Positions 38,222 through 59,180 of a stretch of 64,000 nt of DNA are shown piece after piece; position 1 is the stretch's first letter; each line of letters starts with the position of its first letter. Where the stretch lies: assembly GCF_000814845.2 (NCBI RefSeq), contig NZ_CP010431.2, positions 992,001 to 1,056,000 on the forward strand, in the 5' to 3' direction. Below the pieces are notes generated by a model. That model was not told the DNA's origin. It saw only the letters and a program-made list of their open reading frames with translations, and did no database searches. A program made the position numbers and the translations under genes. This stretch comes from Pandoraea sputorum (GTDB lineage: Bacteria; Pseudomonadota; Gammaproteobacteria; Burkholderiales; Burkholderiaceae).

Positions 38222-39022
38222 ATGAGTACGGTGCGATTTCTGATCAGCCGCCACGACGTCAAACTCATCGTGAACGGCCTGGTGCACACGTTGCCTGCGG
38301 GGAGCATGACCGCGACCAGTTCGGATGCGACGATCGATGCCCCAGGGCCAGTGGTGTCGCACGATTTTCATGCGTGCGATTTGCAGGCGCTGTATCCGGA
38401 CGTCGTCGATCTGCTCGACCGTCGCCCGCTCGGCGTGTTCCACCGGCAGGCAGCGCGCACGCTGATCCTCGAACCCAGCATGGTCGATGTGGCGATGACG
38501 TTGCAGAACGTCGACCGCATGGCGATGCTGCGCTTCTTTTACGTCTACTGCCTGTGCCGCGATCAGCGCTACTTTTCCGCGATGTTGCGCCAGACGATTG
38601 CAGGCAGTCACTCACTGTTCGACTTCGTCGAAGCGAATTTCCATCGACCCTGGCCGGTGGCGCGTCTGGCTGAAGAGTTCGGGATGCCGCTGAGGAAGTT
38701 CCGGTATCTGTTTCAGCAGACATATGGCATGCCCGCCAAGCAATGGTTGCTCGAACGCCGACTGCGACTCGCGCGCGACCTGCTGCTCTCGACCCGTCAC
38801 AAGGTGCTCGATATTGCACTGGAATGCGGCTTCACCAATCACGCTCACTTTACCGATACGTTTCGCAAGCGCTTCGATTGTGCGCCGACGGAGATTCGTC
38901 TGGGCACGCCACCACAGCGCGGTGGCCGACGTGTCGCGATGCCGCGCGCGGACGCCTATGCTGCCATGCGCGCCGATCTCGTCGCGGGACACGGCGCAGC
39001 GACCGATGCAGGCGTGCTATGA
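38222..39022 (+). CDS. AraC-family activator of the type III secretion cluster
   Basis: 266 residues, starting after a GAGGAGG ribosome binding site. The C-terminal half (about 150-240) holds two helix-turn-helix units: WPVARLAEEFGMPLRKFRYLFQQTYGMPAKQW and VLDIALECGFTNHAHFTDTFRKRFDCAP. The N-terminal part resembles regulators of the InvF/ExsA type rather than sugar-binding AraC proteins. Its stop codon overlaps the sctF start, so the activator and the needle operon are coupled. Activation of the cluster is inferred from position. Confidence 0.85.
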   Translation: MSTVRFLISRHDVKLIVNGLVHTLPAGSMTATSSDATIDAPGPVVSHDFHACDLQALYPDVVDLLDRRPLGVFHRQAARTLILEPSMVDVAMTLQNVDRMAMLRFFYVYCLCRDQRYFSAMLRQTIAGSHSLFDFVEANFHRPWPVARLAEEFGMPLRKFRYLFQQTYGMPAKQWLLERRLRLARDLLLSTRHKVLDIALECGFTNHAHFTDTFRKRFDCAPTEIRLGTPPQRGGRRVAMPRADAYAAMRADLVAGHGAATDAGVL

Positions 39023-39237
39023 ATGTCGAGGAAATCCATCGCAGCATGTCGGAAGGCGTGCGACGAATGTCCGACGATGCGACGCAGGCCGTGCGTACGC
39101 AGGAGGTCAACGATCCCCGTAAGATGCTCGACGTCCAGTTCAAGCTGCAGCAGTTCGCAACCGGCGTCGGCTTGCACAGTGCGGCCATCAAGCTCATCAA
39201 GGATACGGTGATGGGCATCATCGCCAAGATTGCATGA
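39019..39237 (+). CDS. sctF: Type III secretion needle protein, SsaG-like
   Basis: Polymerises into the needle. 72 residues, normal for the family. The second half, with MLDVQFKLQQFATGVGLHSA and then IKLIKDTVMGIIAKIA, aligns closely with SPI-2 SsaG (LQQYSTFINYES, IKMIKDMLSGIIAKI), which identifies the SPI-2/LEE branch. Overlaps both the araC stop and the next start by four bases. Confidence 0.9.
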   Translation: MNVEEIHRSMSEGVRRMSDDATQAVRTQEVNDPRKMLDVQFKLQQFATGVGLHSAAIKLIKDTVMGIIAKIA

Positions 39238-39608
39238 TGACGACGTCGTCCGTAACCAATGATGTCACGGCGGCGTGGCTGGACGCGTCGGTCCGGCAGC
39301 AAATCGTCGAATTGGCGCTGGCCGGGGCGCAACATGGTTTGGAGACGGAAGCGCGGACGATTCTGCGAGCGTTGCCGTTGCTCGTGCCTCAGGTTCAGGC
39401 GCGTCAATGTCTGCATGCCGCATTGCTCATCGCGCTGGGCGACACGGCGCAAGCAAGCGCCTGCCTTGCGCGTTTGACGGCCGAAGGTGGGACGGACGAG
39501 GCAGACGTCAGCGCCGCGCGTGTGTTGCAGCACTGGCTCGATGCGACGGTTTCCTCATCGGCACCATCTCCTCCTCTTGCTTCTTCTTTTCCTGAAGTTC
39601 TCCCTTAG
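39234..39608 (+). CDS. sctG: SsaH-like needle co-chaperone
   Basis: 124 residues. The core (GAQHGLETEARTILRALPLLVPQ, then ARQCLHAALLIALGDTAQASACL) follows the pattern of SPI-2 SsaH, a short TPR-like partner that keeps the needle protein soluble. It is about 50 residues longer than SsaH, with a Ser/Pro-rich C-terminal tail. Its place between sctF and sctI is that of ssaH in SPI-2. Confidence 0.72.
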   Translation: MMTTSSVTNDVTAAWLDASVRQQIVELALAGAQHGLETEARTILRALPLLVPQVQARQCLHAALLIALGDTAQASACLARLTAEGGTDEADVSAARVLQHWLDATVSSSAPSPPLASSFPEVLP

Positions 39609-39610
39609 CC

Positions 39611-39988
39611 ATGACGACATTCTCATCCCCTGCGCTTTCGGCGGCTGTTGCGCAAACGTCGGCCGTCGATGCGTCGATGAAACCGTCTTCTGCATTCCCT
39701 GCCGCATTCTCGACGGCTGAGAAGGCCGATGCGGTGCGATTCAATCTCGCGTTGGCGAACGCTGCGCCGTTGCCTGAGCATCATTTGCTGAGTGCTGCGA
39801 ACAAGTTGGCGGGCGACACCGAATATCTGGCGCAGCGCGTGATGTTGGACGAGCGATCTCTGGACGATCCGGCGCGTCTGCTTGCCACGCAGCTCGACAT
39901 GACCGAGCGAGTGCTGGCGCTGGAGTTTGTCGCGAAGGCGGCCGGTGCCACGACGCAGGGCGTCAACAAGCTGGTTCACATGCAATGA
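39611..39988 (+). CDS. sctI: Type III secretion inner rod protein, SsaI-like
   Basis: Forms the inner adaptor between the export gate and the needle. 125 residues, longer than SsaI because of a Ser/Ala-rich N-terminus. The C-terminal helix, with LLATQLDMTERVLALEFVAK and then AAGATTQGVNKLVHMQ, matches the SsaI end (VDYLARISGAASQALNKLDNM). Its stop overlaps the sctJ start (ATGA). Confidence 0.82.
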   Translation: MTTFSSPALSAAVAQTSAVDASMKPSSAFPAAFSTAEKADAVRFNLALANAAPLPEHHLLSAANKLAGDTEYLAQRVMLDERSLDDPARLLATQLDMTERVLALEFVAKAAGATTQGVNKLVHMQ

Positions 39989-40800
39989 CGCGTTGCGGCC
40001 GTGTTGTGAAAGGCGTCGTACCGATCGTTGCGGGTATCGCATCGGGGCGGATCCTGCTCGTCTTCTTGCTCTTGCTGACGCTCGGTGGCTGCAAAGTCGA
40101 GTTGCATCGCGCGCTGAGCGAGACCGAAGCGAATCAGATGCTCGCGCTGCTGCTGGTCTCCGGACTTCAGGCTGACAAGCGCGCGGACACGACAGGCATG
40201 ACCGTCCGGATCGAACGCAGCGATTTCGTGCGTGGCGTCGAAGTGCTTCGTCAGCATGGGTTGCCACACCAGAAACGGGCATCGGTCGAGGACGTATTTC
40301 CGCCGGGACAACTCGTCAGTTCGCCGGTGCAGGAGCAGGCGAAACTCATCTATCTCAAGGAGCAACGGCTGGAGCGCATGCTGGCGGCGCTCGACGGCGT
40401 GATGGTGGCGGAGGTGTCCATTGCACAGGTGCCGACGGACTCGGCCGGACGTGCGACCTTGCCGCCGGGCGTGGCCGTCTTTGTGAAGTACAGCCCCGAA
40501 ATCAACATGACGCAACGCATGACCGACATTCGCAGTCTGGTCCACGACAGCGTGCCGGGGGTATCGCCGGAGCGCATCAGCATCGTGCTGCAACCGGCGG
40601 ACTATGGATTGCCTCGGGCGGCCATCGAGGCGGTCGCAGTGCCAGCGAACGGGGGAGGCGAGATGGCTTGGCGTCCGTGGCTGGGATGGGGAATGTTACT
40701 GACGGCAGCGATGGTGCTTGCCGCGGCCGGGGCGATGGCCTGGCGTCGACGGGGCGAATGGGTCGTCCGGTTACGGCAGCGCGTGGCGAGAGCGACGTGA
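39985..40800 (+). CDS. sctJ: Type III secretion inner membrane ring lipoprotein
   Basis: MS-ring protein of the YscJ/SsaJ family, 271 residues. A hydrophobic signal peptide ends in a lipobox (LTLGGC) at about residue 36, followed by ELHRALSETEANQMLALLL, the ring-building motif 1 and 2 region (QQ-like EQRLERMLAALDGVMVAEVSIA), KYSPEIN and a C-terminal membrane anchor (about 228-252). The ATG gives a long basic lead before the signal core, so a later start is possible. Confidence 0.93.
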   Translation: MTRCGRVVKGVVPIVAGIASGRILLVFLLLLTLGGCKVELHRALSETEANQMLALLLVSGLQADKRADTTGMTVRIERSDFVRGVEVLRQHGLPHQKRASVEDVFPPGQLVSSPVQEQAKLIYLKEQRLERMLAALDGVMVAEVSIAQVPTDSAGRATLPPGVAVFVKYSPEINMTQRMTDIRSLVHDSVPGVSPERISIVLQPADYGLPRAAIEAVAVPANGGGEMAWRPWLGWGMLLTAAMVLAAAGAMAWRRRGEWVVRLRQRVARAT

Positions 40801-41471
40801 CGGCGTGTGCCCGACTCGCGCGCCTGATCTGGCAACCAGGATTGCATATGGATGCCGGATGGTGGACCACGTTCGAGATGTCGGGGTGGCGTGCCCCTTA
40901 CCTCAGACATGCGGCATGTCGTCCACCTGTCGACCGGTTATTGGTCGAACGACGCGGATGGCCGCTGGCCGGACGAACGAACTGCACGCTTGCCCGGAGC
41001 GAGGCTGCGCTGGTCATGCTGCATCTGATACCGAATCTGCGCCGCGTCGCACTGGCTTACGGTTTGCGCGTGCTGGGCTGTCCCGACTATCTGCTGCTCG
41101 GCACATTTCGTCGCGCGCTCTCGCCGTGGCTGGACGCATGGCAATGTGACCGTTTGCTCCTCACGCGGCAGGAGTGGCCGTCGCACCGTGCGTTCGAAGC
41201 GGACGAGCTTGCGACGGCGGCGATGGCGACGACGGGTGAGCAGCTTGACGCAATCTGCACCGCTCGCACATCACCGGACACCTCGGGCGTGCCAGACGAT
41301 CCCGTCGCGACAATCGACGACGTCGCCACCGTACACATGGCTATGCGGATCTTGCTCCCACCGCCTGGGCTGACGGCGGCGGCGGCAGGAGGCAATCCGG
41401 TCATGGACGATATCTGGCCGCGGCTCGCGGCGCTGGAGAAAATGCTATGTATGTCATCGACTACGCATTGA
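40797..41471 (+). CDS. sctK: Type III secretion sorting platform protein, SctK-like
   Basis: Links the SctQ pods to the inner ring. 224 residues from a GTG overlapping the sctJ stop (GTGA); the frame is open further upstream but inside sctJ. The stretch LRVLGCPDYLLLGTFRRALSPWLDAWQCDRLL is the most family-like part. SPI-2 has a poorly conserved SctK (STM1410) at this same place, between ssaJ and ssaK. The assignment rests on position and this block. Confidence 0.72.
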   Translation: MTACARLARLIWQPGLHMDAGWWTTFEMSGWRAPYLRHAACRPPVDRLLVERRGWPLAGRTNCTLARSEAALVMLHLIPNLRRVALAYGLRVLGCPDYLLLGTFRRALSPWLDAWQCDRLLLTRQEWPSHRAFEADELATAAMATTGEQLDAICTARTSPDTSGVPDDPVATIDDVATVHMAMRILLPPPGLTAAAAGGNPVMDDIWPRLAALEKMLCMSSTTH

Positions 41472-42136
41472 CCCCCATCGAGACGATTGACGGCCCCGCT
41501 CCGGCGGGGCCGGTGATTTCCACCGAGGCCATCGTCAGGCTGCGTGACGACGCCAGTCGGCGGGAACGTTGGATGAACGAGGCGCGTGCCGAGCGCGACG
41601 CTGCGCAAGTGGAGCGCGAGCGGGCGAGAAAGGACGCGGAGGTGCAGCGCAATGCATGGGAGGAAGCGGCGCAGACGCGTGCCAGGCAAGAGGCCGCGAC
41701 ACAGGCGGAAGCCGCACGGCAAGCGGCCGTCGCGCAGACCGTGGACTGGCTTGTCGACGAGGCGTCGATGGAACGCGAGATTGTGCGCTCGCTGGAGCGC
41801 AGGGTCGCCGATGCGATGACGGGCGCGCTGTCCAACTTCGTGGGCAAACTCGATGTCGGCGAGCGCTTCGCGCATCGCGTCGGGCAGACGCTGCCGGGTC
41901 TCGTGCGCGAAGGTGTCCTCGTCCTGCGCGTGCCGACGGCGCACCACGCTGCCGTCGCGGGCGCATTGCGCGATGCCGACATTGTGCTCGCGTGTACGCC
42001 GGATGCGACGCTCTCAGGCCGTCAGGCGCGCATCGAAAGCGAGTGGGTCACCGTGTGTCTGGATCTCGATGCGGATCTGGCGGCAGTCATCAAACGTTTG
42101 CGCGCCGTGCCGAATCTGGAGGTCGCGTATGGTTGA
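41447..42136 (+). CDS. sctL: Type III secretion stator protein, SctL (SsaK-like)
   Basis: FliH/YscL-type regulator of the ATPase. 229 residues: a short N-terminal motif, a long charged coiled coil (about 35-100, many Arg/Glu/Ala) and a C-terminal globular domain (VDEASMEREIVRSLERRVADAM, then LDLDADLAAVIKRLRA). It overlaps sctK by 25 bases and sctW by 8. Confidence 0.85.
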   Translation: MYVIDYALTPIETIDGPAPAGPVISTEAIVRLRDDASRRERWMNEARAERDAAQVERERARKDAEVQRNAWEEAAQTRARQEAATQAEAARQAAVAQTVDWLVDEASMEREIVRSLERRVADAMTGALSNFVGKLDVGERFAHRVGQTLPGLVREGVLVLRVPTAHHAAVAGALRDADIVLACTPDATLSGRQARIESEWVTVCLDLDADLAAVIKRLRAVPNLEVAYG

Positions 42137-43265
42137 GCGTCTCCCCACGTCTGCCAATCCGAGCGTTCGTACGCCGCAGGAAGCCAAGGCGCTTGAGCGC
42201 GTATCGACGGGCGAATGGCAGGCGCTTGAAGCCGACGGTCTGTCGTCTCGCGCAACGCTGACGGACGTGCCAGGTCATGTGGCGCTGATCGAAGCGACCA
42301 TTGCACAGAACGAGGAGGCAGCTTTCTCCGAGTCGCAGGAAAATCTGAGCTTCGCGCTGGGCGTTCGTTTTAGGCGCACGGGCGAGCGAGATGTCCGAGA
42401 CGACAAGCAACGCGCGCGTGCGTTGTTCGAACAGCAGATGCAACGATTCGCGCGCGTGAACGGTGCGCAGTTCGAGCGGCTGCGTAGTCAATTGCGCGAT
42501 TTGCCGTTTGTCCCCGATCCTCATCAACTGATCCGGCAGGCGCAGATGTCTGGCGGGCACGCTGCACTGGTTGTTGCTGCGTGGTTGGCCGACAACGGGC
42601 TCGATGCGCAAACGCGCACGCGACTGCGGCGCGCGTTCGATGCCTTGACGGCCTCGGACACATGGGCCATCGAGGCATTTGCGGCACTCGAATGCAGCGA
42701 CGGAAAGTCGCCTGACCTCGCGCTGATGCAACAGCTCAAATCACTGTTTCGTCAATCGCAAGGAACGCAACGCTCGCTGACACAATGGTTCGACGAGTGC
42801 CGTCGCTTCTCGCAACGGCGCGAGCGACTTCGCGCACTCATGCAGGCGCTCGGCCTGGAGTTGGGCGCGCAGCACGCCGACGCCGATACCCAGCGGTTGT
42901 CGGCCGTCGTAGACGATCTCCGTCGCGTAGTGTTGTTTCTCACAATGGAATCGATGTGCGAACGCGTGGCGAACGCGATGCGCGAGGCGGGAGGCCGTGC
43001 GTTTGCGACCGACACCATGATCGCGGAGACGCTGACGTTACTCGATCAGCCTTGGGCGGGCGCCGAATGGCTGACGCAACGCGCCGCGTATCTGGGCCTG
43101 ACGACGGTCGATGTCCGATACGCCTTCGCGCGAGGGCTTTCTCAACTCATCAAGTCAGCGCATGACGGATGTTTTCGGGACGAGACGCAACGCGAAACGC
43201 TCGAAGAAGCACTGAGTGTCTGGCGAACGGAGATTGCGCACGAGGCCGATGCGACGAACCACTGA
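42129..43265 (+). CDS. sctW: Type III secretion gatekeeper, SctW (SsaL/InvE-like)
   Basis: HrpJ/YopN-family switch that orders translocator before effector export. 378 residues, single-chain form with the TyeA-like domain fused at the C-terminus. Family features: an N-terminal disordered secretion region, ESQENLSFALGVRFRR, the helical repeats, and the tail with LLDQPWAGAEWLTQRAAYLG and IYRYAFARGL-like VRYAFARGLSQL. Last gene of the first plus-strand block. Confidence 0.85.
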   Translation: MVERLPTSANPSVRTPQEAKALERVSTGEWQALEADGLSSRATLTDVPGHVALIEATIAQNEEAAFSESQENLSFALGVRFRRTGERDVRDDKQRARALFEQQMQRFARVNGAQFERLRSQLRDLPFVPDPHQLIRQAQMSGGHAALVVAAWLADNGLDAQTRTRLRRAFDALTASDTWAIEAFAALECSDGKSPDLALMQQLKSLFRQSQGTQRSLTQWFDECRRFSQRRERLRALMQALGLELGAQHADADTQRLSAVVDDLRRVVLFLTMESMCERVANAMREAGGRAFATDTMIAETLTLLDQPWAGAEWLTQRAAYLGLTTVDVRYAFARGLSQLIKSAHDGCFRDETQRETLEEALSVWRTEIAHEADATNH

Positions 43266-43361: not shown

Positions 43362-43775
43362 TCAGGCGCGCAGATGCTCGCGGCAGAGCTTGATGCGGTC
43401 GTAGAAATCGGTGAGCGCCTGGGCGAACGGCTCCGCTTCTGCGGCGGCGTCGTCTTTGACTTGCGCGTGAAGAATCAGACGGTTGTCGCTTTCGCGTAGC
43501 TGAACATGCCCGGTGACGGCCCAATCGGCGGGTTCGATCAGAAACTGAAGCAACCGCTCGCTGTTGGCTCGATGCAGCCGGGCGGCTTCGTCCGTCGCCA
43601 CGACGGCATGAATGCTGCACACCTGATTGTCCAGCGTTTCCACAATGATGCTCGGCGAAGCGTTGAACGTTAGCTCGATGGGCGAATGATTGTCGACGGC
43701 GTCGATCTTGCTGGGGTCGCAACCGATCAGCTTCAGGGCTTCGACGAGAGTTTGCGCTAAATCGTAACTGGGCAT
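43362..43775 (-). CDS. Type III secretion chaperone, InvB/SpaK-like (class IB)
   Basis: Small acidic effector chaperone. 137 residues from the ATG at 43775, the length of InvB (135). The N-terminal half (LVEALKLIGCDPSKIDAVDNHSPIELTF) lines up with InvB (SALEVSGCDPSLIGGIDSHSTIVLDL), and LQFLIEPADWAVTGHVQLRESDNRLILHA and FYDRIKLCREHLR match its second half. An in-frame ATG at 43868 would add 31 residues. InvB-type chaperones belong to SPI-1-family systems, so this is an odd partner for an SPI-2-type machine. No effector gene is adjacent. Confidence 0.82.
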   Translation of the reverse strand: MPSYDLAQTLVEALKLIGCDPSKIDAVDNHSPIELTFNASPSIIVETLDNQVCSIHAVVATDEAARLHRANSERLLQFLIEPADWAVTGHVQLRESDNRLILHAQVKDDAAAEAEPFAQALTDFYDRIKLCREHLRA

Positions 43776-43842
43776 GGTGGGCGTGGAAGTGAACGTGGAG
43801 GGTGGGACGGCATTGATGACGCGCCCCATGTCGGCGTCAAAC

Positions 43843-43870
43843 ATCGTTCGACATGAATCGTTCGACATGA
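43843..43870 (-). repeat. 14-bp perfect tandem duplication upstream of the chaperone
   Basis: ATCGTTCGACATGA occurs twice head to tail. The ATG of the longer chaperone reading lies within it. Probably a recent slippage event; effect unknown. Confidence 0.7.
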
Positions 43871-44024: not shown

Positions 44025-44306
44025 CTACGCGTTTTGACTGCGCCGATCGCCACGGCCGTTACCGGCGGCGGTCGGTTTTCCATACGATGTGCTGTAGCGA
44101 CGTGCGATGCTTTCGAGAATCGCCTCCGCAGCCTGAACCGCCTGCATCAGCGATTGCGTCTGTGCGTGTTGTGCGGGGGGGAGCGGCATGCGAAGCGATC
44201 CTTCGAGCGTTGCGCGCGCAGCAACGAGTGCCGCCCCGACATTGCGCGACACAGGGCCGGGGGAATCCGCGAGGGCGTCTTCAAGGCGGGTCAGACGGAT
44301 CGTCAT
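44025..44306 (-). CDS. ssaE: SsaE-like type III secretion chaperone
   Basis: 93 residues. The N-terminus IRLTRLEDALADS and the core ALVAARATLEGSLRMPLPPAQ, then LMQAVQAAEAILESIARRYS, follow SPI-2 SsaE (TLTRLEDLLLHS; LRAARKQLEE; LLEAIEQAENIINIIYYRY). SsaE assists secretion of the translocator SseB in Salmonella. Position after sctD, which it overlaps by 26 bases, is the same as in SPI-2. Confidence 0.8.
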   Translation of the reverse strand: MTIRLTRLEDALADSPGPVSRNVGAALVAARATLEGSLRMPLPPAQHAQTQSLMQAVQAAEAILESIARRYSTSYGKPTAAGNGRGDRRSQNA

Positions 44307-45609
44307 GTTGGGTCTCCGGGGTAGTGGGTGTCAGGGGAAGGTAAAAGAGGCGGTCGTAGGCACCGATCGACACGCCGTCGGCATGAATGGCAACGATGCG
44401 CGTGCCGCCAGGCAGGCGGACGCCCTGCGCAAGACGGGTGCCGTCGGCAAGCGTGAGCTGCGGTGCACCCGGCGAGCCGCCAATGCTGACGAGCGGCGCG
44501 GAGAAGCCCGTCTCGGCCAGTGTCGGAATGCGCGGCGGCAGGGGGTCGATGCGTAGCGGCATGGCGTCGGCCGAACGATTCCACGTGTTGGCGAGGCCCT
44601 TGAGCGACGCTTGCCGTCCGTCAGACAACGCACCGGTAATCCGCCACCCGTTACGGTCGCGCGAGATGTCGACTCCGTGCAGTTGACCTGCCTCGCGCAA
44701 TGTTTTCACCAACTGGTCGAAGCTATGGGCGGTGCCGTTCGCCACGCGCCATCCATGAGGCAACGCGAGTGTGTCCAGCGCATCCGACGCAGCGCGCCAA
44801 CGGGCATCGGCAACGAGCGGGCCACCGACGACCATCGCACCGTCTGCAGCCACGTTGACATGTGCATTGACGAAACCATGCAGCCGCAGCAGCGTGCTCA
44901 CCGTCTGTATGGCATTCGCGGTGCACCAGGTGTCGTCGCTCAACGCTTTACCGAGCCAGCGTGCTTCGGCACGTAAGCGGGCGCGCGTGTCGTCGTCGAT
45001 ACAACCGCCCGACAGCCGCACGGCGTCACCTGCAGTATTGATCGAGACATTGGGCGCGATGCGGGCGGCCAGCGCCCGGAACGCATCGGGTTGCGGGGGA
45101 CGGGAGATGACGTTGGCGGTGCCGGTGCGCCACATAGCGACACCCGCGCCAGCCATCAGCAGCGACAGACCCGAAATTGCCAGCCAGGCGGCAGGCGAGC
45201 GGCGTTGTCTGGGGGTGCCCCTTGAGGCGGCAACGTCCGGAACGTCTGCGGCTTCCACCGTTGTGGACGGAGGGAGGCAGCGCGCGGGACGCTTCGGCAG
45301 TGGCGTGGGTAACGGCTGGGTGTCGTCGCCGAGCCACACGCCGAGGCCCGCAAGATCGATCACGGTATGAAGGGGAAGTGGGCGGGCGTCGGACGCGTCG
45401 TCGGTCGCCGTGACCGGCATGCCGTCGACCCAGACGGGAGTGTGCGAGATCAAACTGACGCGATCTTCCTCGACATGCAGGGTGACGTCGACTTCGTCGT
45501 CGAGCGTCATCGCAATGTCGGCCTCGCCACTTCCGATGGTGAGCGGTCCGGCCGGAAGCGGCATGGGACGCCCGGCGAGTGGGCCGTCGAGGAGCGTTAG
45601 GGTTGGCAT
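44281..45609 (-). CDS. sctD: Type III secretion outer ring protein of the inner membrane, SctD (SsaD-like)
   Basis: 442 residues. A degenerate N-terminal FHA-like cytoplasmic domain (1-100) is followed by a basic linker, one membrane segment (about 144-160, AWLAISGLSLLMAGAGVAMW) and a periplasmic region with ring-building/BON-like repeats (VSTLLRLHGFVNAHVNVAADGAMVVGG, WRITGALSDGRQAS). Comparable in length to SsaD. The gene order sctC-sctD-ssaE equals ssaC-ssaD-ssaE. Confidence 0.87.
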   Translation of the reverse strand: MPTLTLLDGPLAGRPMPLPAGPLTIGSGEADIAMTLDDEVDVTLHVEEDRVSLISHTPVWVDGMPVTATDDASDARPLPLHTVIDLAGLGVWLGDDTQPLPTPLPKRPARCLPPSTTVEAADVPDVAASRGTPRQRRSPAAWLAISGLSLLMAGAGVAMWRTGTANVISRPPQPDAFRALAARIAPNVSINTAGDAVRLSGGCIDDDTRARLRAEARWLGKALSDDTWCTANAIQTVSTLLRLHGFVNAHVNVAADGAMVVGGPLVADARWRAASDALDTLALPHGWRVANGTAHSFDQLVKTLREAGQLHGVDISRDRNGWRITGALSDGRQASLKGLANTWNRSADAMPLRIDPLPPRIPTLAETGFSAPLVSIGGSPGAPQLTLADGTRLAQGVRLPGGTRIVAIHADGVSIGAYDRLFYLPLTPTTPETQHDDPSDPP

Positions 45610-52739: not shown

Positions 52740-53125
52740 AAGACCGCGACGGCATCGCCGCGTTGGCGATGCTGGCGCAACGCCGGGAAGCCGGCTTACG
52801 TGCTGCATTGGTACGCCTCATGTCGGCGGCAAGGGAGGCCGACGATAACGTCGTTATGTGTGAACGCGCTTGCGATGCTCAACGTGATGTATGGCAGAGG
52901 GCGTTGTCGCGCGGCGGCGTGTATGGGCCGCGCGAGGCGGCAGGCGCGGCGCGTCTCGTGGAGGAGGAGCGCACTTCGCTGGTCGACGCCAAAGCCCGGC
53001 ACAGCAGGGCAATCGACATCGCACGGCAAGCGCAAGCCAATGTGCGTGAGCAGCGCGAACGCCTTCAGAGCAACGCCAGGAAACAGGAGAAATTGCGTGA
53101 GTTGTTGAAGTTCTGCCGGACTTGA
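52715..53125 (+). CDS. sctO: Type III secretion central stalk protein SctO
   Basis: YscO/FliJ-like coiled coil, 136 residues, very rich in Arg, Ala, Glu and Gln with heptads over most of its length. It overlaps the sctN end by 25 bases, as is usual for this gene. Sequence conservation in the family is low, so the assignment rests on the coiled coil and on position between sctN and sctP. Confidence 0.8.
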   Translation: MARASRELKDRDGIAALAMLAQRREAGLRAALVRLMSAAREADDNVVMCERACDAQRDVWQRALSRGGVYGPREAAGAARLVEEERTSLVDAKARHSRAIDIARQAQANVREQRERLQSNARKQEKLRELLKFCRT

Positions 53126-53181: not shown

Positions 53182-53646
53182 ATGAATACCATCCGCCGCA
53201 GTGGCTTGTCCGCCGATGCGTTCGGCAGTCTGTCGGAACGATCGACTTCGTACCAGCGCGACACGGCAGCGGTTTCACAAGCAAGAAACAACGGCCGGGC
53301 CGACTGCGACGACCGAGACGAGCGAGCATTCGCGTTAGCGGGCGAACCAGCAGCCTGCGTGACCGGTCCCGCCGATGTCCTTCGCTGGTTGCGTGTCTGG
53401 CATACCCGTCAGGATGCGAACTGGGACAGCGCAAGCGCACTGCGCGTCGTCGTGCATGGCGGTGCGCTGGACACACTGGTTGTGGAAGCCCGTCGCGGAC
53501 GGCAGGGGATTACCGTGAGTCTGCTGTGCGCGCGTCTGACGATGTATCGCCGACTGCTGGCACATCGCGGGCAACTCTCGCGGACGTTGACGTCACGCTT
53601 CGCGCTGCCCGTCACTGTCGAAGTCGAGGCGCGTTATGCGCCATGA
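53182..53646 (+). CDS. sctP: Type III secretion needle-length/switch protein, SctP-like (SsaP)
   Basis: 154 residues from the ATG at 53182; a TTG at 53122 could add 20. The C-terminal part (LRVVVHGGALDTLVVEARRGRQGITVSLLCARLTMYRRLLAHRGQLSRTL in parts) resembles the substrate-switch domain end of SctP proteins. It is short, close to SsaP, and lacks a long Pro/Gln-rich ruler. Position between sctO and sctQ supports it. Confidence 0.68.
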   Translation: MNTIRRSGLSADAFGSLSERSTSYQRDTAAVSQARNNGRADCDDRDERAFALAGEPAACVTGPADVLRWLRVWHTRQDANWDSASALRVVVHGGALDTLVVEARRGRQGITVSLLCARLTMYRRLLAHRGQLSRTLTSRFALPVTVEVEARYAP

Positions 53647-54717
53647 GACCGGGGCGGTGTCGGATCATCCGCTGACGCGCGATGTCGGCGTTGCGTTGGA
53701 GGGGGTACTCGCGGGCACGGGCTGCGTGCGCTTCATCGAAGGCGGGACGGAGGTGCGCGTCGGATGGCTTCGCGCAGGGGGGACGGGCTCATTGCGACCG
53801 CACGGGTCGATGAAGGCGTCGTGGGCCAGACGCACTTCTGGTGCGACGCCGGACAATGGGCGGAGTGGCTCGGCGACCGACTTCCTGTTCCGTCGTGGGA
53901 GGCTTTGCCGCCGGACTGGCAGGCGAGCGCCGCGTCGCTGACCCTTGCAACGGAGGGCGCGGACTTCGAGGGCGACGAAGACCCGGAGCGCGAGGCGATG
54001 GCGGGGATCGCCCCGGACACTGAGCGGCCAGTTGCCGCGATGCGCCGGGCGCGCGAGGACACATTCGCTGCGCCGACTTCCTGGCCGCAGGTGACGGTGA
54101 TCACACGCGAGTCCGTCGAGACGACATGGCGCATCGGCATCGTGTTGCAGCGCGGGGCGCGTCGGTTGGCGTTAATGCATCTCGATGGTGTGACGACGTG
54201 GCTCACGGACCGTTGCCAGCGCGCGATCCCGTGCGACGCGCCACTGGACCCGTCCGGCTTGCCGACGCGTCGGTGCCTCCTCGCGGTGGGCTGGGGCGAT
54301 CTCCCAGCGTCGCTTTGTGAACGTCTGCGCGAGGGCGGCGCGGTACTGCTAGACGTGGCGGCCGACGTTGCGTCCGGCGAGTACTGGCTGCTCGACGGTG
54401 AGCGAGGCATTGCGATGTGCGACGGACAACCTACGGAGCGACACGTCGTGTTGCCCTTTCTCCCGACACCGGGCACCGTGGAAGGCGGCGCGGCGTCATG
54501 TACCCGTCTGGTCGCGGTCATTGCCGAAAGGGCGTTGCCCGTTCCGAGTCTGGCGGCGTGGCATCTCGGGCGCGCGACGTCACATGAGCGCGCGCCGCCA
54601 GACGTTTTGAGCGCCGCACGTATCTCGCTCTGGCGCGACGGTACGCCATGGGCCAACGGACGTCTTTTGCGCTTCGGCGATGGGCGTCTTGCGGTGCAAA
54701 TCGATCCGGTGCCCTGA
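53636..54717 (+). pseudogene. sctQ: Type III secretion C-ring protein SctQ, frame interrupted at a G6 run
   Basis: Sorting-platform pod protein (FliN/SpoA family). The N-terminus starts at 53636, overlapping the sctP end by 11 bases, and reads DHPLTRDVGVALEGVLAGTG, then RVGWLRAGG up to G6 at 53777-53782. The rest (DGLIATARVDEGVVGQTHFW through the SpoA domain ALPVPSLAAWHLGRA and GRLLRFGDGRLAVQI) is in another frame; one extra G would join them into about 360 residues. Without the join, translation could start only at an ATG at 53764, losing about 45 residues. Transcript slippage at the run, true mutation, or a sequence error are all possible. Confidence 0.75.
54415..54717 (+). other. Possible internal start producing a short SctQ-C form
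   Basis: An in-frame ATG at 54415, seven bases after a GAGG Shine-Dalgarno, would yield 100 residues containing the C-terminal SpoA domain. SctQ proteins of Salmonella SPI-2, Yersinia and Shigella make such short products from internal starts; that it happens here is inferred from the site alone. Confidence 0.5.
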
Positions 54718-54810
54718 TTTCGGGTCGTGACCCGATGGGCGTGCATTCGGTCACGTCCTACCATTTGCCGATCGACGACCTCTGCGTCGTGCCTCGTCAG
54801 CATGCGGCTG

Positions 54811-54876
54811 TGTCTTGGCTGTGTTTCGGCTGTGTTTCGGCCGTATCACGGCTATGTTCCGGCCGTGTCGCTGCCA
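54811..54876 (+). repeat. Degenerate 11-bp tandem repeat between sctQ and sctR
   Basis: Six units of a TGTTTCGGCTG-like 11-mer starting at 54811, 54822, 54833, 54844, 54855 and 54866. They lie in the 248-base sctQ-sctR gap, the largest gap in the otherwise tightly packed second plus-strand block. No protein is recognised there. Confidence 0.7.
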
Positions 54877-54965
54877 CGTTGTTTCGCCTCGTCCCGCTGT
54901 CTCTTCCTTCGTCTTCGCAGGCTGGCGTGCTTGTCCGGCGGACGAAGGCGTTCATTGGAGTTCGT

Positions 54966-55616
54966 ATGTCCTTGCTCGACCATCCGGTGCAGCTTGTCGT
55001 TCTGCTATCGCTGCTCTCGATCATGCCGTTGCTGGTGGTGCTGGGGACTGCTTTCCTGAAACTGGCGGTCGTCTTCGCGCTTCTGCGCAATGCGCTGGGG
55101 ACGCAGCAGATCCCGCCCAACATCGCGATCTACGGTCTGTCGCTCGTTCTCACGTGTTTCATCATGGCGCCGGTCGCCTTCGACATCGAAGCCAACGTCG
55201 GCGCCCGGCCGGTGTCGCTCTCATCGAAAAGCTTCGTAGCCGACGTAGACGCCACTGTGCTCTCGCCGTACCGCGCGTTTCTCACCCGTCACACCGACGC
55301 CAGACAACGCGACTTCTTCGCCGGGCTGGGAAGTGAGACGTGGCCGGAAGCGCATCGCGACCGGCTGGGTGCTGACTCGCTGCTCGTGCTGATGCCTGCC
55401 TTCGCGCTGAGTCAGTTGGCCGAGGCCTTCAAGATCGGTTTGCTGCTCTATCTTCCGTTCATCGTGATCGATCTGGTGATCTCGAACATCCTGCTCGCGA
55501 TGGGGATGATGATGGTCTCGCCCATGACCATCGCCCTGCCGTTCAAGCTGCTCATCTTCGTGATGATGAACGGTTGGGAGCAACTGGTGCGGCAGTTGAT
55601 GCTCTCGTACGCATGA
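54966..55616 (+). CDS. sctR: Type III secretion export gate protein SctR
   Basis: FliP/SsaR family, 216 residues, four membrane segments. Conserved stretches: LGTAFLKLAVVFALLRNALGTQQIPPN in parts, LMPAFALSQLAEAFKIGLLLYLPFIVIDLVISNILLAMGMMMVSP in parts, and the C-terminal PFKLLIFVMMNGWEQL. The frame is open upstream but the ATG at 54966 gives the family start MSLLDHPVQLVVLLS. Confidence 0.96.
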   Translation: MSLLDHPVQLVVLLSLLSIMPLLVVLGTAFLKLAVVFALLRNALGTQQIPPNIAIYGLSLVLTCFIMAPVAFDIEANVGARPVSLSSKSFVADVDATVLSPYRAFLTRHTDARQRDFFAGLGSETWPEAHRDRLGADSLLVLMPAFALSQLAEAFKIGLLLYLPFIVIDLVISNILLAMGMMMVSPMTIALPFKLLIFVMMNGWEQLVRQLMLSYA

Positions 55617-55635
55617 CGCCGCCGGGAGCCTGCTC

Positions 55636-55902
55636 ATGAGCGAAGCCATCGTCGTCAATCTCACCAGTGAAATGCTCTGGCTCACGTTGCTGATGTCACT
55701 GCCGACGGTCGTCGTCGCGTCCGCCGTCGGCGTACTGGTGTCGCTGGTGCAGGCCCTCACGCAGGTGCAGGATCAGACGGTTCAGTTCCTCATCAAGCTC
55801 ATTGCCGTGTCGGTCACGCTGGCCGCGACCTATGCATGGATGGGCCATGTGTTGCTCAACTACGCGGGCAGCGCGTTCGAGCAAATCAGCAGGATGGGGT
55901 GA
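55636..55902 (+). CDS. sctS: Type III secretion export gate protein SctS
   Basis: FliQ/SsaS family, 88 residues, two membrane hairpins. Conserved: LWLTLLMSLPTVVVASAVGVLVSLVQALTQVQDQT in parts. Starts 19 bases after sctR and ends five bases before sctT. Confidence 0.95.
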   Translation: MSEAIVVNLTSEMLWLTLLMSLPTVVVASAVGVLVSLVQALTQVQDQTVQFLIKLIAVSVTLAATYAWMGHVLLNYAGSAFEQISRMG

Positions 55903-55907
55903 GCGCG

Positions 55908-56780
55908 ATGTTCGATATGGTCGAGATGGTCGAGATGGTCGATGTGCCGAAGATCGCCACCCTGAGCGCGTCGTCCGATATGGTGATTGCGCCACTGTGG
56001 GCCGACCTGTTCGGCTGGACGCAGGCGTGGGGCGTGGCGATGTTGCGCCCGCTAGGCATTGCGATGTTGCTGCCGGTACTGTCGGTCGGCATGCTCGGCG
56101 CAGGCATGTTGCGCAACGCGCTGGTGCTCGCGCTCGCGTTGCCGGTCGTCGCGCTCGTGCATCAGACGATAAATATGCCAACGCAGTGGAGCGCGTGGGG
56201 CATGTTGATCATGCGAGAGCTTTTCATCGGTGGTCTCGTTGGATTCGTGGCGACGCTACCGTTCTGGGCCGTCGACATGACGGGGTACGTGATCGACACC
56301 ATGCGCGGTGCGTCGATGGCCAGCGTGCTCAATCCGCTCATGAGCGCGCAATCGTCGATCTTCGGCATTGCGTTGACGCAGATGCTCTGCGTGCTCTTCT
56401 TCGTCACACCGGCGGCACATGCGGTGCTGAGCGCGCTGTACGACTCGTACGTGGCGGTGCCGATAGGGCAGCCTTTGCGATGGGAGGACGCGTCCGTCGC
56501 CTGGCTGCTATCGCTCTGGCAGGCGATGCAGGTCATGTGCGTGGCGGTGGCGTTGCCTGCGATGGTCGTGATGGTGCTCGTCGATATGTCGATGGGCTTC
56601 GTGAACCGCGCGGCGCAGCAACTCAACGTGTTCTTCCTCGCCATGCCGGTCAAAAGCGCGATGGCGCTGCTCGTGACGGTCGCCAGTCTGCCGTTCGCCA
56701 TTGCCGTGCCGCTCGCGCACTGGTATCGCCTGCCCGAGGTGCTTCGCACGTGGGTGGTCGTGACGCTTCCTGCTTCGTGA
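55908..56780 (+). CDS. sctT: Type III secretion export gate protein SctT
   Basis: FliR/SsaT family, 290 residues, about six membrane segments; conserved LIMRELFIGGLVGFVATLPFWAVDMTGYVIDTMRGASM in parts and MPVKSAMALLV near the end. The first codons include a 9-bp tandem repeat (55914-55940) encoding a Met-Val-Glu stretch not typical of the family. Closely follows sctS. Confidence 0.94.
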   Translation: MFDMVEMVEMVDVPKIATLSASSDMVIAPLWADLFGWTQAWGVAMLRPLGIAMLLPVLSVGMLGAGMLRNALVLALALPVVALVHQTINMPTQWSAWGMLIMRELFIGGLVGFVATLPFWAVDMTGYVIDTMRGASMASVLNPLMSAQSSIFGIALTQMLCVLFFVTPAAHAVLSALYDSYVAVPIGQPLRWEDASVAWLLSLWQAMQVMCVAVALPAMVVMVLVDMSMGFVNRAAQQLNVFFLAMPVKSAMALLVTVASLPFAIAVPLAHWYRLPEVLRTWVVVTLPAS

Positions 56781-56787
56781 GGCGCGC

Positions 56788-57903
56788 GTGAGCGAGAAGA
56801 ACCTTCCCCCTACCCCCAAGAAGATTCAGGACGAGCGCAAGAAGGGGCGTGTCGCCAAGAGCGCCGATCTTGCCGTGTGCATGCAACTTGGCGCGACGCT
56901 CGCGTGGCTGATGTTCGAGGGGCCAGCCCTCTACGACGCGCTGCAAGCGCTGATTGCCCGCATGCTCCTCGTGCTGAGAGATCCGGTGGCGGAAGCTGTG
57001 CAGGGCATGCTCGGCCCGTCGCTGTTGATCTTCGTGCGCTTCGCAGGCGGCCTCGCCGTGCTGCTGATCGTGACGACGTGGCTCGCGATGGTCCTGCAAG
57101 TGGGGGCGCTGGTCGCGCCTGAGGTGATTCGTCCGAAGTATGAGCGCATCGATCCCGTCGCCAAAGCCAAGCAACTGTTCTCGATGCAGTCGCTTTTCGA
57201 GTTTGGCAAGTCACTCGTCAAGGTCGTCGTGCTGGGACTGGTCTTTTTCTATCTGATCCGGCAGTACACGCCGTCGCTGGCCGTGCTTGCGCAGTGCGGC
57301 CCGTCCTGCGGGCTGGCGCTCACCGTGCGGTTGATGTTCTGGTTAATGGCGGTGCTGGTGATCGCTTATGTCGTGTTCGGTGGTCTGGACTTCGCGTACC
57401 AGAAGTATCAGTTGCGCAAGCAGCTCATGATGTCTCACGACGAAATCAAGCGTGAGTCCAAGGAGGTGGAGGGCAACCGCGAGATCAAGAACAAGCGGCG
57501 CGAGATCCACCGTGAGACGATCGAGAGCGGCAGCCTGTCGGACAACGTCAAGCGGTCGACGGCCGTGGTGCGCAACCCTACGCGCCTCGCCATTTGCCTG
57601 CGTTACGTGCCGGGCGAGACGGCTGTGCCGCTGGTGATCGAAAAAGGCCGCCACGCGCGTGCGCGCACCATTGTGCGAATTGCGGAGCGCGAGGGCGTTC
57701 CGGTCGTCGAGCACGTTCCCGTGGCGCGGCGGCTGATGGACGACGTCGAAATCGATGCACCGATCCCGCCGGACCTCTTTGACGCAGTGGCTGCGATTCT
57801 GCGGCTCGCACTGGATTTGCCTTATGAGGTGCAGACGTCCTCGGCCGAGGACGAAGCGCAGGCAGGCCCGGCGACGCGGACTCCCGATGGGGAGGGCGCA
57901 TGA
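56788..57903 (+). CDS. sctU: Type III secretion switch protein SctU with NPTR cleavage motif
   Basis: FlhB/SsaU family, 371 residues: MSEKNLPPTPKKIQDERKKGRVAKS N-terminus, four membrane segments, linker helix with MMSHDEIKRESKEVEGN, and the cytoplasmic autocleaving domain. The motif expected to be NPTH, cut between Asn and Pro, is N263-P-T-R266 (AAC CCT ACG CGC at 57574-57585), in the context VVRNPTRLAICLRY. The Asn-Pro bond is kept, the His is lost. Overlaps the next gene by four bases. Confidence 0.93.
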   Translation: MSEKNLPPTPKKIQDERKKGRVAKSADLAVCMQLGATLAWLMFEGPALYDALQALIARMLLVLRDPVAEAVQGMLGPSLLIFVRFAGGLAVLLIVTTWLAMVLQVGALVAPEVIRPKYERIDPVAKAKQLFSMQSLFEFGKSLVKVVVLGLVFFYLIRQYTPSLAVLAQCGPSCGLALTVRLMFWLMAVLVIAYVVFGGLDFAYQKYQLRKQLMMSHDEIKRESKEVEGNREIKNKRREIHRETIESGSLSDNVKRSTAVVRNPTRLAICLRYVPGETAVPLVIEKGRHARARTIVRIAEREGVPVVEHVPVARRLMDDVEIDAPIPPDLFDAVAAILRLALDLPYEVQTSSAEDEAQAGPATRTPDGEGA

Positions 57904-59180
57904 GCGGGCGACCGACGAATCGGGGGCGGCAGCGTTGGCGTCACGTGTTGCTGATGTCCGGCGCGCTGTGGCTGGGCGGCCTGCCGTCGTTGGCGGCGGA
58001 TCGGGGGTTGCTGCCGCAGCATCCCAGGGTCACGGATGCGCAGATCGCGGTGCCGACGGCGGGACGTGTCGCCAATCGGTCGGGTGGGGCCGGTGGAAGC
58101 GGCGCCGGGTCGCGCGGGGCGCGTGAGACGTCGGACCCACCCGATGCGATCATTGCGACCGATGCGGTGAGCACGCGCGATGCCGCGAGACGCCTCGTCT
58201 CGTCGTTACGGGAGGCCCCGGCACCGGCGCCACCGTCCATCGCGTCGGCGAGGACGGCGAGAACGGAAACGCCGCCCGCGGGACGGAACCTGGAGGCTGA
58301 CCCGAGCGTTGCGCCCGGTCTGGGCAACCATCCCGATCTCGCTGGTCCGGCAACGTTGGCGAGCCGCACACCCGCCAACCCCGGCGCTGTCGCCACTGCG
58401 GCGCCTGCAAATCTCCCCTTCGACGCGCTCGTGCGTCGCGCGGCCCAGGCGACCTCCGTCGATGCGGCCTTGTTGCACGCGATCATCGACACCGAGTCGG
58501 GATACGACCCGCAGGCGGTCTCGGAGCGCGGCGCCATCGGGCTGATGCAGATCCTGCCACGCACCGGGCAGCGTTTTGGTGTTCGCCGTCTGGAAGACCC
58601 TGCCGAGAACCTGCGCGCAGGCGCGTCGTATCTGCGCTGGCTGCTCTCGCGGTTCGATGACGATGTCAGTCTGGCGCTCGCGGCCTACAACGCCGGGGAG
58701 GGGGCGGTATTGCGGTATGGCCGTCAGGTGCCGCCGTTCCCCGAGACGCAGAACTACGTACGTAAGGTCATGGCGAGTTACTCGCGTCTGCGCGCCCCCG
58801 CAGGAGCAGACGCTGTTGTGCCGCCGCAGGCATCAAGGGGCGCTGCTTCGCCGTCTGCCGCGCAGGCACTCGTCCAGACGGATGACCTGGGGCGCAACGA
58901 CATGCGGGACACGATCGCGAACGTGGGCAAGGTGGCGAGAGCCGGGAGTGCAGAAAGGGCCGACAGGGCCGATGTCCCGGACGACAAGAACGCCCGCGCG
59001 TGGCGTTTGCTGCAGGGGCTCGGAGAACTGATCACGCGCAGCCCATCGGCCGACGCCGCACGTCGTGCGGGCAACGCCGATGCCCGCAGGCGCGATCAAC
59101 CAGCGGTTGTCATGCCGTCACGCGTGCGGGAGCGCACCGCCGGCGCGGCGCTTCGGCCTGCCGGGCACGGAGACGGGTGA
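57900..59180 (+). CDS. Type III secretion-associated lytic transglycosylase
   Basis: Peptidoglycan-cutting enzyme that opens the wall for the injectisome, in the role of IpgF/EtgA. 426 residues: signal peptide (about 1-33), a long low-complexity Ala/Pro/Gly/Ser/Thr linker (35-170), and an SLT domain with the catalytic glutamate E199 in HAIIDTESGYDPQAVSERGAIGLMQILP in parts and AAYNAGEGAVLRYG. A further disordered C-terminal tail follows. Coupled to sctU by an ATGA overlap, so it belongs to the secretion operon. Confidence 0.88.
   Translation: MSGRPTNRGRQRWRHVLLMSGALWLGGLPSLAADRGLLPQHPRVTDAQIAVPTAGRVANRSGGAGGSGAGSRGARETSDPPDAIIATDAVSTRDAARRLVSSLREAPAPAPPSIASARTARTETPPAGRNLEADPSVAPGLGNHPDLAGPATLASRTPANPGAVATAAPANLPFDALVRRAAQATSVDAALLHAIIDTESGYDPQAVSERGAIGLMQILPRTGQRFGVRRLEDPAENLRAGASYLRWLLSRFDDDVSLALAAYNAGEGAVLRYGRQVPPFPETQNYVRKVMASYSRLRAPAGADAVVPPQASRGAASPSAAQALVQTDDLGRNDMRDTIANVGKVARAGSAERADRADVPDDKNARAWRLLQGLGELITRSPSADAARRAGNADARRRDQPAVVMPSRVRERTAGAALRPAGHGDG

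What the first reader, a model, noticed from the sequence alone, without database searches (positions are those of the whole stretch)
38222..59180. Complete SPI-2-family type III secretion apparatus in a Burkholderiales chromosome
All core parts (SctC, D, F, I, J, K, L, N, O, P, Q, R, S, T, U, V, W) are encoded, together with proteins special to the SPI-2 branch: SsaG-like needle, SsaH, SsaI, SsaE, SsaM and a probable SsaB. The better studied systems of Burkholderia belong to the Inv/Mxi and Hrp branches, so an Ssa/Esc-type machine here suggests a separate acquisition and perhaps an intracellular or eukaryote-associated life style.
Basis: partly seen in the sequence, partly recalled or inferred. 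Interest (0 to 1): 0.8.

Follow-up and report, generated by a model that had tools for sequence, protein, structure and literature searches.

The report
Split SPI-2-type secretion machine in Pandoraea
This Pandoraea bacterium carries a Salmonella-SPI-2-like protein-injection machine whose base genes are inherited within the genus, while the genes for the host-membrane pore sit over a million bases away and appear to have been exchanged between species.

Summary
In detail: window 38222-59180 encodes an Ssa/Esc (SPI-2-family) type III secretion base (SctV tree; models). The organism is a Pandoraea near P. sputorum/commovens. A chromosomal Ssa-Esc system in Pandoraea is already in print (PMC9967039). 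What I found in no paper searched: (1) the cluster has no translocon gene that I could find; an SPI-2-type operon (two SseB-like, SscA, SseC, SseD, SseE-like, one unknown) lies over 1 Mb away, beside an oxoprolinase gene in 28 of 28 genomes tabulated; (2) the base follows flank phylogeny on the branch in question, the translocon does not: the window's group carries the allele of more distant species (AU p=2.6e-67; third codon positions agree), and two species carry divergent operons at that site; (3) three SsrB-like boxes mark base promoters, none the translocon, whose leader folds into a hairpin pairing the ribosome-binding site in 26 of 26 type A/B genomes; (4) no SsrA was detected for SsrB. 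Secretion, host and effectors are untested. A new variant of a known kind.

The parts
38123..38142 (+). SsrB-like box before the AraC-SctF operon
   Evidence: pattern TTMAGGTCYSCRCCGGATRR (made from these promoters), exact; 3 in window vs 0.19 expected
38222..39022 (+). AraC-family regulator
   Evidence: PF12833 81.2 bits; 88-99% in the 26 other genomes where seen
39019..39237 (+). SctF needle (SsaG-like)
   Evidence: PF09392 52.2, TIGR02105 44.2 > 41.7
39234..39608 (+). SsaH-like needle co-chaperone
   Evidence: TIGR02498 52.6 (cut-off 56.15), DUF1039 42.8 > 25
39611..39988 (+). SctI inner rod (SsaI-like)
   Evidence: TIGR02497 30.5 > 23.45
39985..40800 (+). SctJ lipoprotein ring
   Evidence: TIGR02544 199 > 162
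40797..41471 (+). SctK
   Evidence: PF13327 80.9 > 25; GTG start
41447..42136 (+). SctL stator
   Evidence: TIGR02499 42.4 (under cut-off 78.7)
42129..43265 (+). SctW gatekeeper (SsaL-like)
   Evidence: NF011872 104.8 (cut-off 435), TIGR02511 34.6 > 25.9
43362..43868 (-). InvB/SpaK-family class-I chaperone, conserved in Pandoraea, no hit in the P. farris cluster
   Evidence: PF03519 48 > 25; 75-96% in 26 of the 27 other genomes tabulated, missing in the deleted G004
44025..44306 (-). SsaE needle co-chaperone
   Evidence: TIGR02501 44.8 > 38.25; profile hits EscE/AscE/PscE chains, E 0.001-0.003
44281..45609 (-). SctD
   Evidence: TIGR02500 151 > 86
45612..47288 (-). SctC secretin
   Evidence: NF011873 578 > 524
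47291..47770 (-). SsaB/SpiC-position protein, perhaps class-I chaperone fold
   Evidence: 33% to a P. farris protein that hits SpiC 19.2 bits; low-confidence model
47842..47861 (-). SsrB-like box in the SsaB/SsrB divergent promoter
48008..48667 (+). SsrB-like response regulator without detected SsrA
   Evidence: NF011896 245.3 > 242
48765..48784 (+). SsrB-like box before the SsaM-SctU operon
48918..49307 (+). SsaM/SycN-like chaperone
   Evidence: own hit SycN 16.6 bits E 0.005; bridge through P. farris homologue (SycN 76.1, NF011880 51.7)
49304..51382 (+). SctV (SsaV-like)
   Evidence: NF009363 941.6 (cut-off 993), TIGR01399 840.7 > 692; tree
51384..52739 (+). SctN ATPase
   Evidence: NF005295 608 (cut-off 690); best PDB EscN
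52715..53125 (+). SctO by position
   Evidence: no secretion-family match
53182..53646 (+). SctP by position
   Evidence: no family match
53764..54717 (+). SctQ, very divergent
   Evidence: model matches FliM SPOA::FliN E 3e-5
54735..55616 (+). SctR
   Evidence: TIGR01102 277 > 208.6
55636..55902 (+). SctS
   Evidence: TIGR01403 102.7 > 76.5
55908..56780 (+). SctT
   Evidence: TIGR01401 198 > 163
56788..57903 (+). SctU
   Evidence: NF009364 412.5 > 381
57900..59180 (+). lytic transglycosylase joined to the operon
   Evidence: PF01464 100 bits > 21.3

Best explanation
An Ssa/Esc (SPI-2-family) injectisome kept under purifying selection in Pandoraea, built from two separate chromosomal modules. 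The base, needle, export gate and gatekeeper are made from the window, whose three promoters carry SsrB-like boxes presumably read by the SsrB orthologue (inferred; a cognate SsrA was not found). The tip and pore (SseB-like, SseC, SseD with chaperone SscA) are made from an operon beside an oxoprolinase gene, controlled separately, with a leader hairpin that pairs with the ribosome-binding site (structure predicted, regulation inferred). The needle should take the SseB tip and SseC/SseD pore and inject unknown effectors into a eukaryotic cell (inferred from the family). The base is inherited vertically in the sampled genomes; the translocon operon has been replaced at its fixed site by alleles from other Pandoraea, and in two species much more divergent operons stand there (topology conflict shown; adaptive reason inferred).
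For: Family models and SctV tree. Translocon operon in own genome: SseC (PF04888 127.5 > 30.2; NF011889 310 bits, cut-off 540), SseB (PF03433 39.9 > 23.4; NF052422 61.9, and 31.2 for the second copy, cut-off 155), SseD (NF052420 61.9, cut-off 130), SscA (NF011890 96.9, cut-off 163), SseE-like (34% to the G020 protein, E 3e-18). Taking SctC and SseC as markers, both are in 25 of 32 genomes, base only 2, translocon only 1, neither 4 (Fisher p 0.002, not corrected for kinship). Translocon locus beside the oxoprolinase in 28 of 28 tabulated genomes. Translocon conflicts with base and flanks: AU p 2.6e-67 (translocon against the nine-species clade), 1e-34 (base against type A as a clade), 3.6e-5 (flanks against it); third codon positions give the same (base nine-clade 100/100, type A rejected p 0.0004; translocon type-A clade 100/100, nine rejected p 6e-86). 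Boxes: three exact in 5.74 Mb, no other site of the 20-base pattern with one mismatch or fewer. Leader hairpin in 26 of 26 type A/B genomes, z -6.5 in the own genome, 90.6% of cells paired against 26-53% when slid.
Against: No secretion, expression or host data. SctO and SctP unverified, SctQ highly diverged. The translocon proteins lie under the curated NCBIfam cut-offs. G004 has lost about half of the base cluster, and SctC in G002 and G021 matched in two pieces, so the system is dispensable in some lineages. The nine-species and type-A groups were named after seeing trees and identities, which weakens the AU p-values as tests; the third-position trees carry warnings of uneven composition and, for the translocon, of long branches meeting. 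Base and flank trees differ in lesser branches (G013, G003/G025, G021). Long-kept old alleles could mimic exchange. The box pattern was made from the sites it finds; a looser palindrome gives seven more one-mismatch sites in the genome against one in the control, of which I looked at one. Covariation of the hairpin is modest: a version slid by +2 gives 3 pairs and 9 cells changed on both sides against 3 and 10. No box at the translocon means that co-expression of the two modules is assumed, not shown.
Confidence: 0.75

Rival explanations
1. The remote SseBCD operon serves the second, Inv/Mxi-type machine of the same genome, and the SPI-2 base lacks a translocon.
For: The genome also carries an Inv/Mxi system; no shared cis box links base and operon.
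Against: The Inv/Mxi cluster has its own SipB-, SipC- and SipD-like proteins (PF16535 68.1 > 31, PF09599 53.1 > 25, PF06511 198.5 > 25). The remote operon's best models are SPI-2-type and its order is SseB-SscA-SseC-SseD-SseE; presence agrees with that of the SPI-2 base in 29 of 32 genomes (25 both, 4 neither).
Confidence: 0.08
2. The translocon/species conflict reflects old alleles kept for a long time and sorted by lineage (or reciprocal loss of paralogues), not transfer between species.
For: Synonymous divergence is near saturation in both comparisons (SseD dS 0.96 against G006 and 1.00 against G022), so dates cannot be told.
Against: Apart from G012, G019 and G020, no genome of 32 has more than one SseC match; the further matches of G012 and G019 are distant and on other contigs, and G020's two are pieces of one ORF. 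The site is fixed. G020 carries a deeply divergent operon there while its nearest relatives G015, G016 and G023 do not, which is easiest to read as replacement.
Confidence: 0.15
3. A decaying, non-functional system kept by linkage.
For: G004 has a large internal deletion; SctC in two pieces in G002 and G021; SctQ dN/dS 0.26-0.32.
Against: The window genes are open reading frames; low dN/dS; conserved boxes and hairpin; SctC orthologue in 27 of 32 genomes.
Confidence: 0.1
4. One reading: a recent separate acquisition by this strain signalling an intracellular life style.
For: Not detected in most sampled Burkholderiales: 3 of 399 genomes at E 1e-90, one of them the own genome (strict limit, few candidates scored per genome).
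Against: Genus-wide base at one site, vertical by tree; composition like the surroundings.
Confidence: 0.05

Closest known systems
Salmonella SPI-2 (Ssa) T3SS
   Same: SsaG/H/I/J, SsaE, SsaV/N/Q-U set, SsaM- and SpiC-position chaperones, SsrB, boxes before the ssaG, ssaB and ssaM counterparts (box sites from PMC2837388), sseB-sscA-sseC-sseD-sseE order of the translocon (SPI-2 gene order recalled)
   Different: translocon operon more than 1 Mb away; D-C-SsaB-SsaE block on the opposite strand; no SsrA found; AraC regulator and InvB-type chaperone in the cluster; two SseB-like proteins; no box found at the translocon
Pseudomonas farris / P. chlororaphis SPI-2-like clusters
   Same: 60-61% SctV; in P. 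farris the same inverted SctD-SctC-SsaB block and AraC-SctF start
   Different: in P. farris the translocon lies beside the base on one contig and a hybrid kinase sits next to ssrB
Chromosomal Ssa-Esc cluster of Pandoraea faecigallinarum DSM 23572 (PMC9967039)
   Different: that paper says the cluster did not share Salmonella translocons; here G012 shows the SseC operon at C1:4.95 Mb
Second SPI-2-like system in some Pandoraea (P. sputorum P0082, P. oxalativorans P0086; plasmid NZ_CP011808.2 of P. faecigallinarum)
   Same: Ssa/Esc-like SctV in the same genus
   Different: 57-59% SctV; P0082 and P0086 group with Chromobacterium amazonense and Aeromonas; on the plasmid an SseC-like gene (24%) lies about 3 kb from SctN

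Membership tests
Ssa/Esc (SPI-2) T3SS | SctV groups with SsaV/EscV-type proteins, not with Ysc, Inv/Mxi, Rhc or Chlamydia | tested here: met
   39-row clade, SH-aLRT 99, quick tree with long branches; labels of the reference groups are recalled (Photorhabdus and Bordetella Ysc, Bradyrhizobium Rhc); best PDB relative SsaV; no Hrp reference with a certain label was in the tree
Ssa/Esc (SPI-2) T3SS | SPI-2-type secretin SctC | tested here: met
   NF011873 578 > 524; TIGR02516 450.5 > 238; that NF011873 is the SPI-2 type is recalled
Ssa/Esc (SPI-2) T3SS | curated cut-offs of the best SctV and SctN models (NF009363, NF005295; SsaV/SsaN-type by recall) | tested here: not met
   941.6 < 993 and 608 < 690; they are the best-scoring models but narrower than the family
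Ssa/Esc (SPI-2) T3SS | SsaE/SsaH needle co-chaperones | tested here: met
   SsaE above cut-off; SsaH 52.6 against 56.15, Pfam DUF1039 above cut-off
Ssa/Esc (SPI-2) T3SS | SsaB/SpiC and SsaM | tested here: inconclusive
   only through P. farris homologues and a low-confidence model
Ssa/Esc (SPI-2) T3SS | SPI-2-type translocon SseB/SseC/SseD encoded in the genome | tested here: met
   (Pfam above cut-off for SseC and one SseB; NCBIfam models best but under cut-off); located outside the cluster
SsrAB regulation | SsrB with cognate SsrA | tested here: not met
   SsrB NF011896 245.3 > 242; with the P. farris kinase as query no hit covers residues 1-392 of 1046
SsrAB regulation | 7-4-7 palindromic boxes at ssaB, ssaG, ssaM promoters | tested here: met
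   against the description in PMC2837388 (passages); binding not tested
Ssa/Esc (SPI-2) T3SS | effector delivery into host cells | not testable with these tools
   needs experiment

The most novel reading that the evidence does not exclude
In Pandoraea the SPI-2-type injectisome is a two-part machine: a fixed, vertically inherited base, and a free-standing translocon cassette at its own chromosomal address, with its own RNA-level control, that is swapped between species and even replaced by far divergent versions, so the host-facing tip evolves by exchange independently of the base.
Probability: 0.6. Interest if true: 0.65.

Novelty: new variant of a known kind. Interest (0 to 1): 0.52.

Why it matters
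Translocons meet the host membrane, so their independent exchange would be a direct route by which injectisomes retune to hosts. One survey that compared gene neighbourhoods reported this kind of cluster without a translocon (PMC9967039, passages); this case shows why genome-wide searches are needed. The SsrB without a found SsrA and the leader hairpin give testable control points in a genus reported from cystic fibrosis lungs (PMC5635052, start of abstract in a search listing) and as a fungal endosymbiont (PMC10939042, passages).

Tried and rejected
Tried and dropped: (a) Box-like sites elsewhere as a wider regulon: the 2-mismatch site at 1,497,805 lies inside ORFs and the near-palindrome at 4,246,327 at the ends of two convergent ORFs, so neither looks like a promoter; of the seven 3-mismatch sites only that at 4,246,327 was looked at, and the other six 1-mismatch sites were not. 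(b) An empty translocon site in the genomes without T3SS: the flank gene was found in 0 of 4 (G018, G024, G026, G030) at E 1e-50, so the question stays open. (c) Rfam for the translocon leader: no match up to E 1. (d) Homologues of the divergent G020 SseC: only itself (P. pneumonica) and one more among 7994 candidates scored, so donor unknown. (e) SseC tree across genera: long branches, so the G020+G028 join and the outer branching are not trusted; G016 filled only 12% of the columns there, cause not looked into. (f) AlphaFold models are of low confidence. (g) Selection-driven protein convergence as cause of the translocon conflict was rejected by third codon positions. (h) G004, G020 and G028 were left out of the 25-genome trees; G020 and G028 were added, where G004 is in the flank tree only.

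Paper searches behind 'in no paper searched': Pandoraea with type III secretion (45 papers, 20 listed), translocon (2), T3SS (22), SPI-2 (3); SPI-2/type III secretion/Burkholderiales/Chromobacterium (45, 25 listed); translocon/unlinked/type III secretion/SseC (59, 20 listed); SsrB/palindrome/heptamer (48, 12 listed); type III secretion/translocon/recombination/allele/needle tip (10); type III secretion/RNA thermometer/Shine-Dalgarno/translocon (1). The library is open-access only. I saw passages of PMC9967039, PMC8565462, PMC10939042, PMC5064223, PMC2837388, PMC5836817, PMC5632650, PMC8490769 and PMC6266680; no paper was read whole; of the others I saw only search listings.


Full report
What is there. 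The window is positions 992,001-1,056,000 of a single 5.74-Mb contig of a Pandoraea: its SctV is 97-98% identical to P. sputorum and P. commovens. The cluster reads AraC-F-H-I-J-K-L-W on the plus strand, then (minus strand) InvB-type chaperone, SsaE, D, C and the SsaB-position protein, then on the plus strand SsrB, SsaM, V, N, O, P, Q, R, S, T, U and a lytic transglycosylase. G+C of 0.61-0.68 is like the surroundings. SctO and SctP are named by position only, SctQ by fold of a low-confidence model.

Family. The SctV tree of 60 rows puts the window in a 39-row clade (SH-aLRT 99) with Chromobacterium, Pseudomonas, Burkholderia, Aeromonas, Yersinia, Shewanella and other rows, apart from the rows that I label (from memory) Ysc, Rhc and Chlamydia, and from the Inv/Mxi SctV of the same genome (quick method, one support measure, long branches, no sure Hrp row). 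PDB names agree: SsaV 638 bits, YscV-type 600, and for cytosolic-domain chains SsaV 230 > EscV 211 > LcrD 179 > InvA 147 > MxiA 122. The best SctV and SctN models are under their curated cut-offs.

The missing translocon. None of the cluster's genes matched a translocon family. A genome-wide SseC search gave two loci: one in the Inv/Mxi cluster at 203 kb, which has its own SipB-, SipC- and SipD-like proteins, and one at 5.48 Mb. The latter is an operon on the minus strand: unknown 147-aa protein (no Pfam or NCBIfam match that reaches a cut-off), two SseB-like proteins, SscA chaperone, SseC, SseD, and an SseE-like protein. As I recall SPI-2, this is its sseA-E order with an extra SseB and no recognisable SseA. 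In the 11 genomes where both loci lie on one contig (G000, G003, G010, G012, G013, G016, G019, G020, G021, G022, G031) they are 1.1-1.4 Mb apart, counting the shorter way round for the nine near-complete ones if circular (from positions and lengths). In P. farris, Yersinia thracica and rohdei, Lonsdalea, Shewanella and Cupriavidus the SseC gene is in or beside the cluster.

Distribution. Of 32 Pandoraea genomes, 27 have an SctC orthologue (26 at 76% or more, G028 at 64%) and 26 an SseC orthologue (58-100%); 25 have both, G020 and G028 only the base, G004 only the translocon, and G018 (1.2 Mb), G024, G026 and G030 neither. G020 and G028 have SseC-type operons at 26-28% identity. In G024, G026 and G030 the glutamate-synthase-like gene, GST and purB are adjacent, an empty site. 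G004, whose flank proteins are 98-100% identical to the window's, has no match from the middle of SctW to the middle of SctP but keeps its translocon operon. In a sample of 399 Burkholderiales genomes three pass the NF011873 model at E 1e-90, one of them the own genome and two of one other genus (a strict limit, with few candidates scored per genome).

Exchange of the translocon. The oxoprolinase gene flanks the translocon in 28 of 28 genomes tabulated, and the gene on the other side was seen in 26 of 28. By sequence there are type A (8 genomes, the window's included), type B (18), and two divergent operons (G020, G028). Base proteins (10 proteins, 25 genomes) and flank proteins both join the window's group (G000, G001, G009, G019) with G002, G006, G007, G012 and G031; the translocon instead joins it with G017, G021 and G022. 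Base and flank trees differ in lesser branches. Each data set rejects the other's grouping, third codon positions agree, and G020 sits with G015, G016 and G023 by base and flanks although those carry type B. So the operon between two constant neighbours has been replaced. Limits: groups were chosen after seeing the data; synonymous sites are near saturation; the third-position trees carry composition and long-branch warnings; long-kept old alleles are not fully excluded. Between types the translocon proteins differ more than the base: dN/dS of SseC, SseD and SseB against G006 is 0.33, 0.48 and 0.45, against 0.10, 0.20 and 0.14 with G009.

Regulation. Alignment of promoter regions showed a shared block; the pattern made from it is found three times exactly in the window (0.19 expected) and, in the whole genome, nowhere else with one mismatch or fewer (11 sites up to three mismatches, 4 for the reversed control). 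The looser palindrome gives the same three exact sites and seven with one mismatch (control 1). All three boxes are present with up to four mismatches in 26 of 26 genomes with all three promoters fetched and undeleted; G004 keeps one, and G028 shows the two whose promoters were fetched. Of 12 stretches of other genera scanned, 11 have at least one site with up to four mismatches, and most sites stand shortly before the AraC, SsaM, SctR or SsaB counterpart; four sites stand elsewhere (L014:19609, L016:16804, L020:14803, L022:12428). The layout matches the 7-4-7 SsrB palindrome described for Salmonella and Sodalis (hexamer ACmTTA; footprints at ssaB, sseA, ssaG, ssaM and others; PMC2837388, passages). 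The own translocon stretch has no site up to three mismatches; up to four, 6 of 28 translocon stretches have one or two, none of them between the oxoprolinase gene and the first translocon gene by the coordinates; and 17 of 26 genomes lack even a half site upstream. P. farris has a hybrid kinase beside ssrB; in the own genome no hit to it covers residues 1-392, so SsrB looks orphaned. Its likely receiver aspartate (D57, read from the sequence) is present.

Leader hairpin. In 26 of 26 type A/B genomes the sequence before the first translocon gene folds so that the GGAGG of the ribosome-binding site is paired, wholly or, in G027, all but one base (-22.8 to -35.8 kcal/mol). In the own genome -30.2 kcal/mol, z -6.5, none of 200 shuffles as low. 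On 23 distinct rows, 90.6% of cells pair against 26-53% for slid versions. Three pairs and ten cells change on both sides (0 of 500 shuffles reach the cells, 161 of 500 the pairs), but the version slid by +2 reaches 3 pairs and 9 cells, so covariation is modest; two core pairs vary C-G to U-G in 8 and 10 rows. The stretches before SseB2, SseD and the transglycosylase gene fold about as strongly in the own genome (-31 to -33), so strong folding alone is not special; conservation and pairing of the ribosome-binding site are the argument. How it opens is unknown.

Prior art. PMC8565462 describes SPI-2 as sporadic in Burkholderia s.l. with several effector and chaperone genes lacking; PMC5064223 reports ssaJ, escN and other T3SS-related genes on Pandoraea plasmids.

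Verdict. A true, already reported Ssa/Esc system, here shown to be two-part with an exchanging translocon and apparently separate control. Function, host and effectors remain inference.

Noticed in passing
own genome C1:184-206 kb (L007, L008): A second, Inv/Mxi-type T3SS with SipB-, SipC- and SipD-like proteins; the organism has two injectisomes.
   Followed up: partly
window 43362-43868: InvB/SpaK-family chaperone in an SPI-2-type cluster, conserved in Pandoraea (75-96%); I recognised no effector gene beside it, so its cargo may be elsewhere.
   Followed up: no
L139:6440-10691 and L138:7305-11202: Divergent SPI-2-type translocon operons (with SseE in G020, 88.8 bits, cut-off 110) at the same chromosomal site; donors unknown.
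   Followed up: partly
L129, L146: Close relative G004 lacks the middle of the base cluster but keeps the translocon operon.
   Followed up: partly
window 53764-54717: SctQ is so diverged that no curated model reaches its cut-off, with dN/dS 0.26-0.32 among relatives.
   Followed up: partly
window 6298-6707 and 7595-7659: RNase P RNA (RF00010) and a Betaproteobacteria toxic small RNA match (RF02278, 69.3 bits).
   Followed up: no
P0082, P0086, L174: A second SPI-2-like system in some Pandoraea, on a plasmid in P. faecigallinarum; P0082 and P0086 are of separate origin by tree.
   Followed up: partly
L142 (G021), L196 (G002): SctC matches in two pieces, and SsrB and SsaM in G021 are only partly matched; decay or sequencing error.
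   Followed up: no
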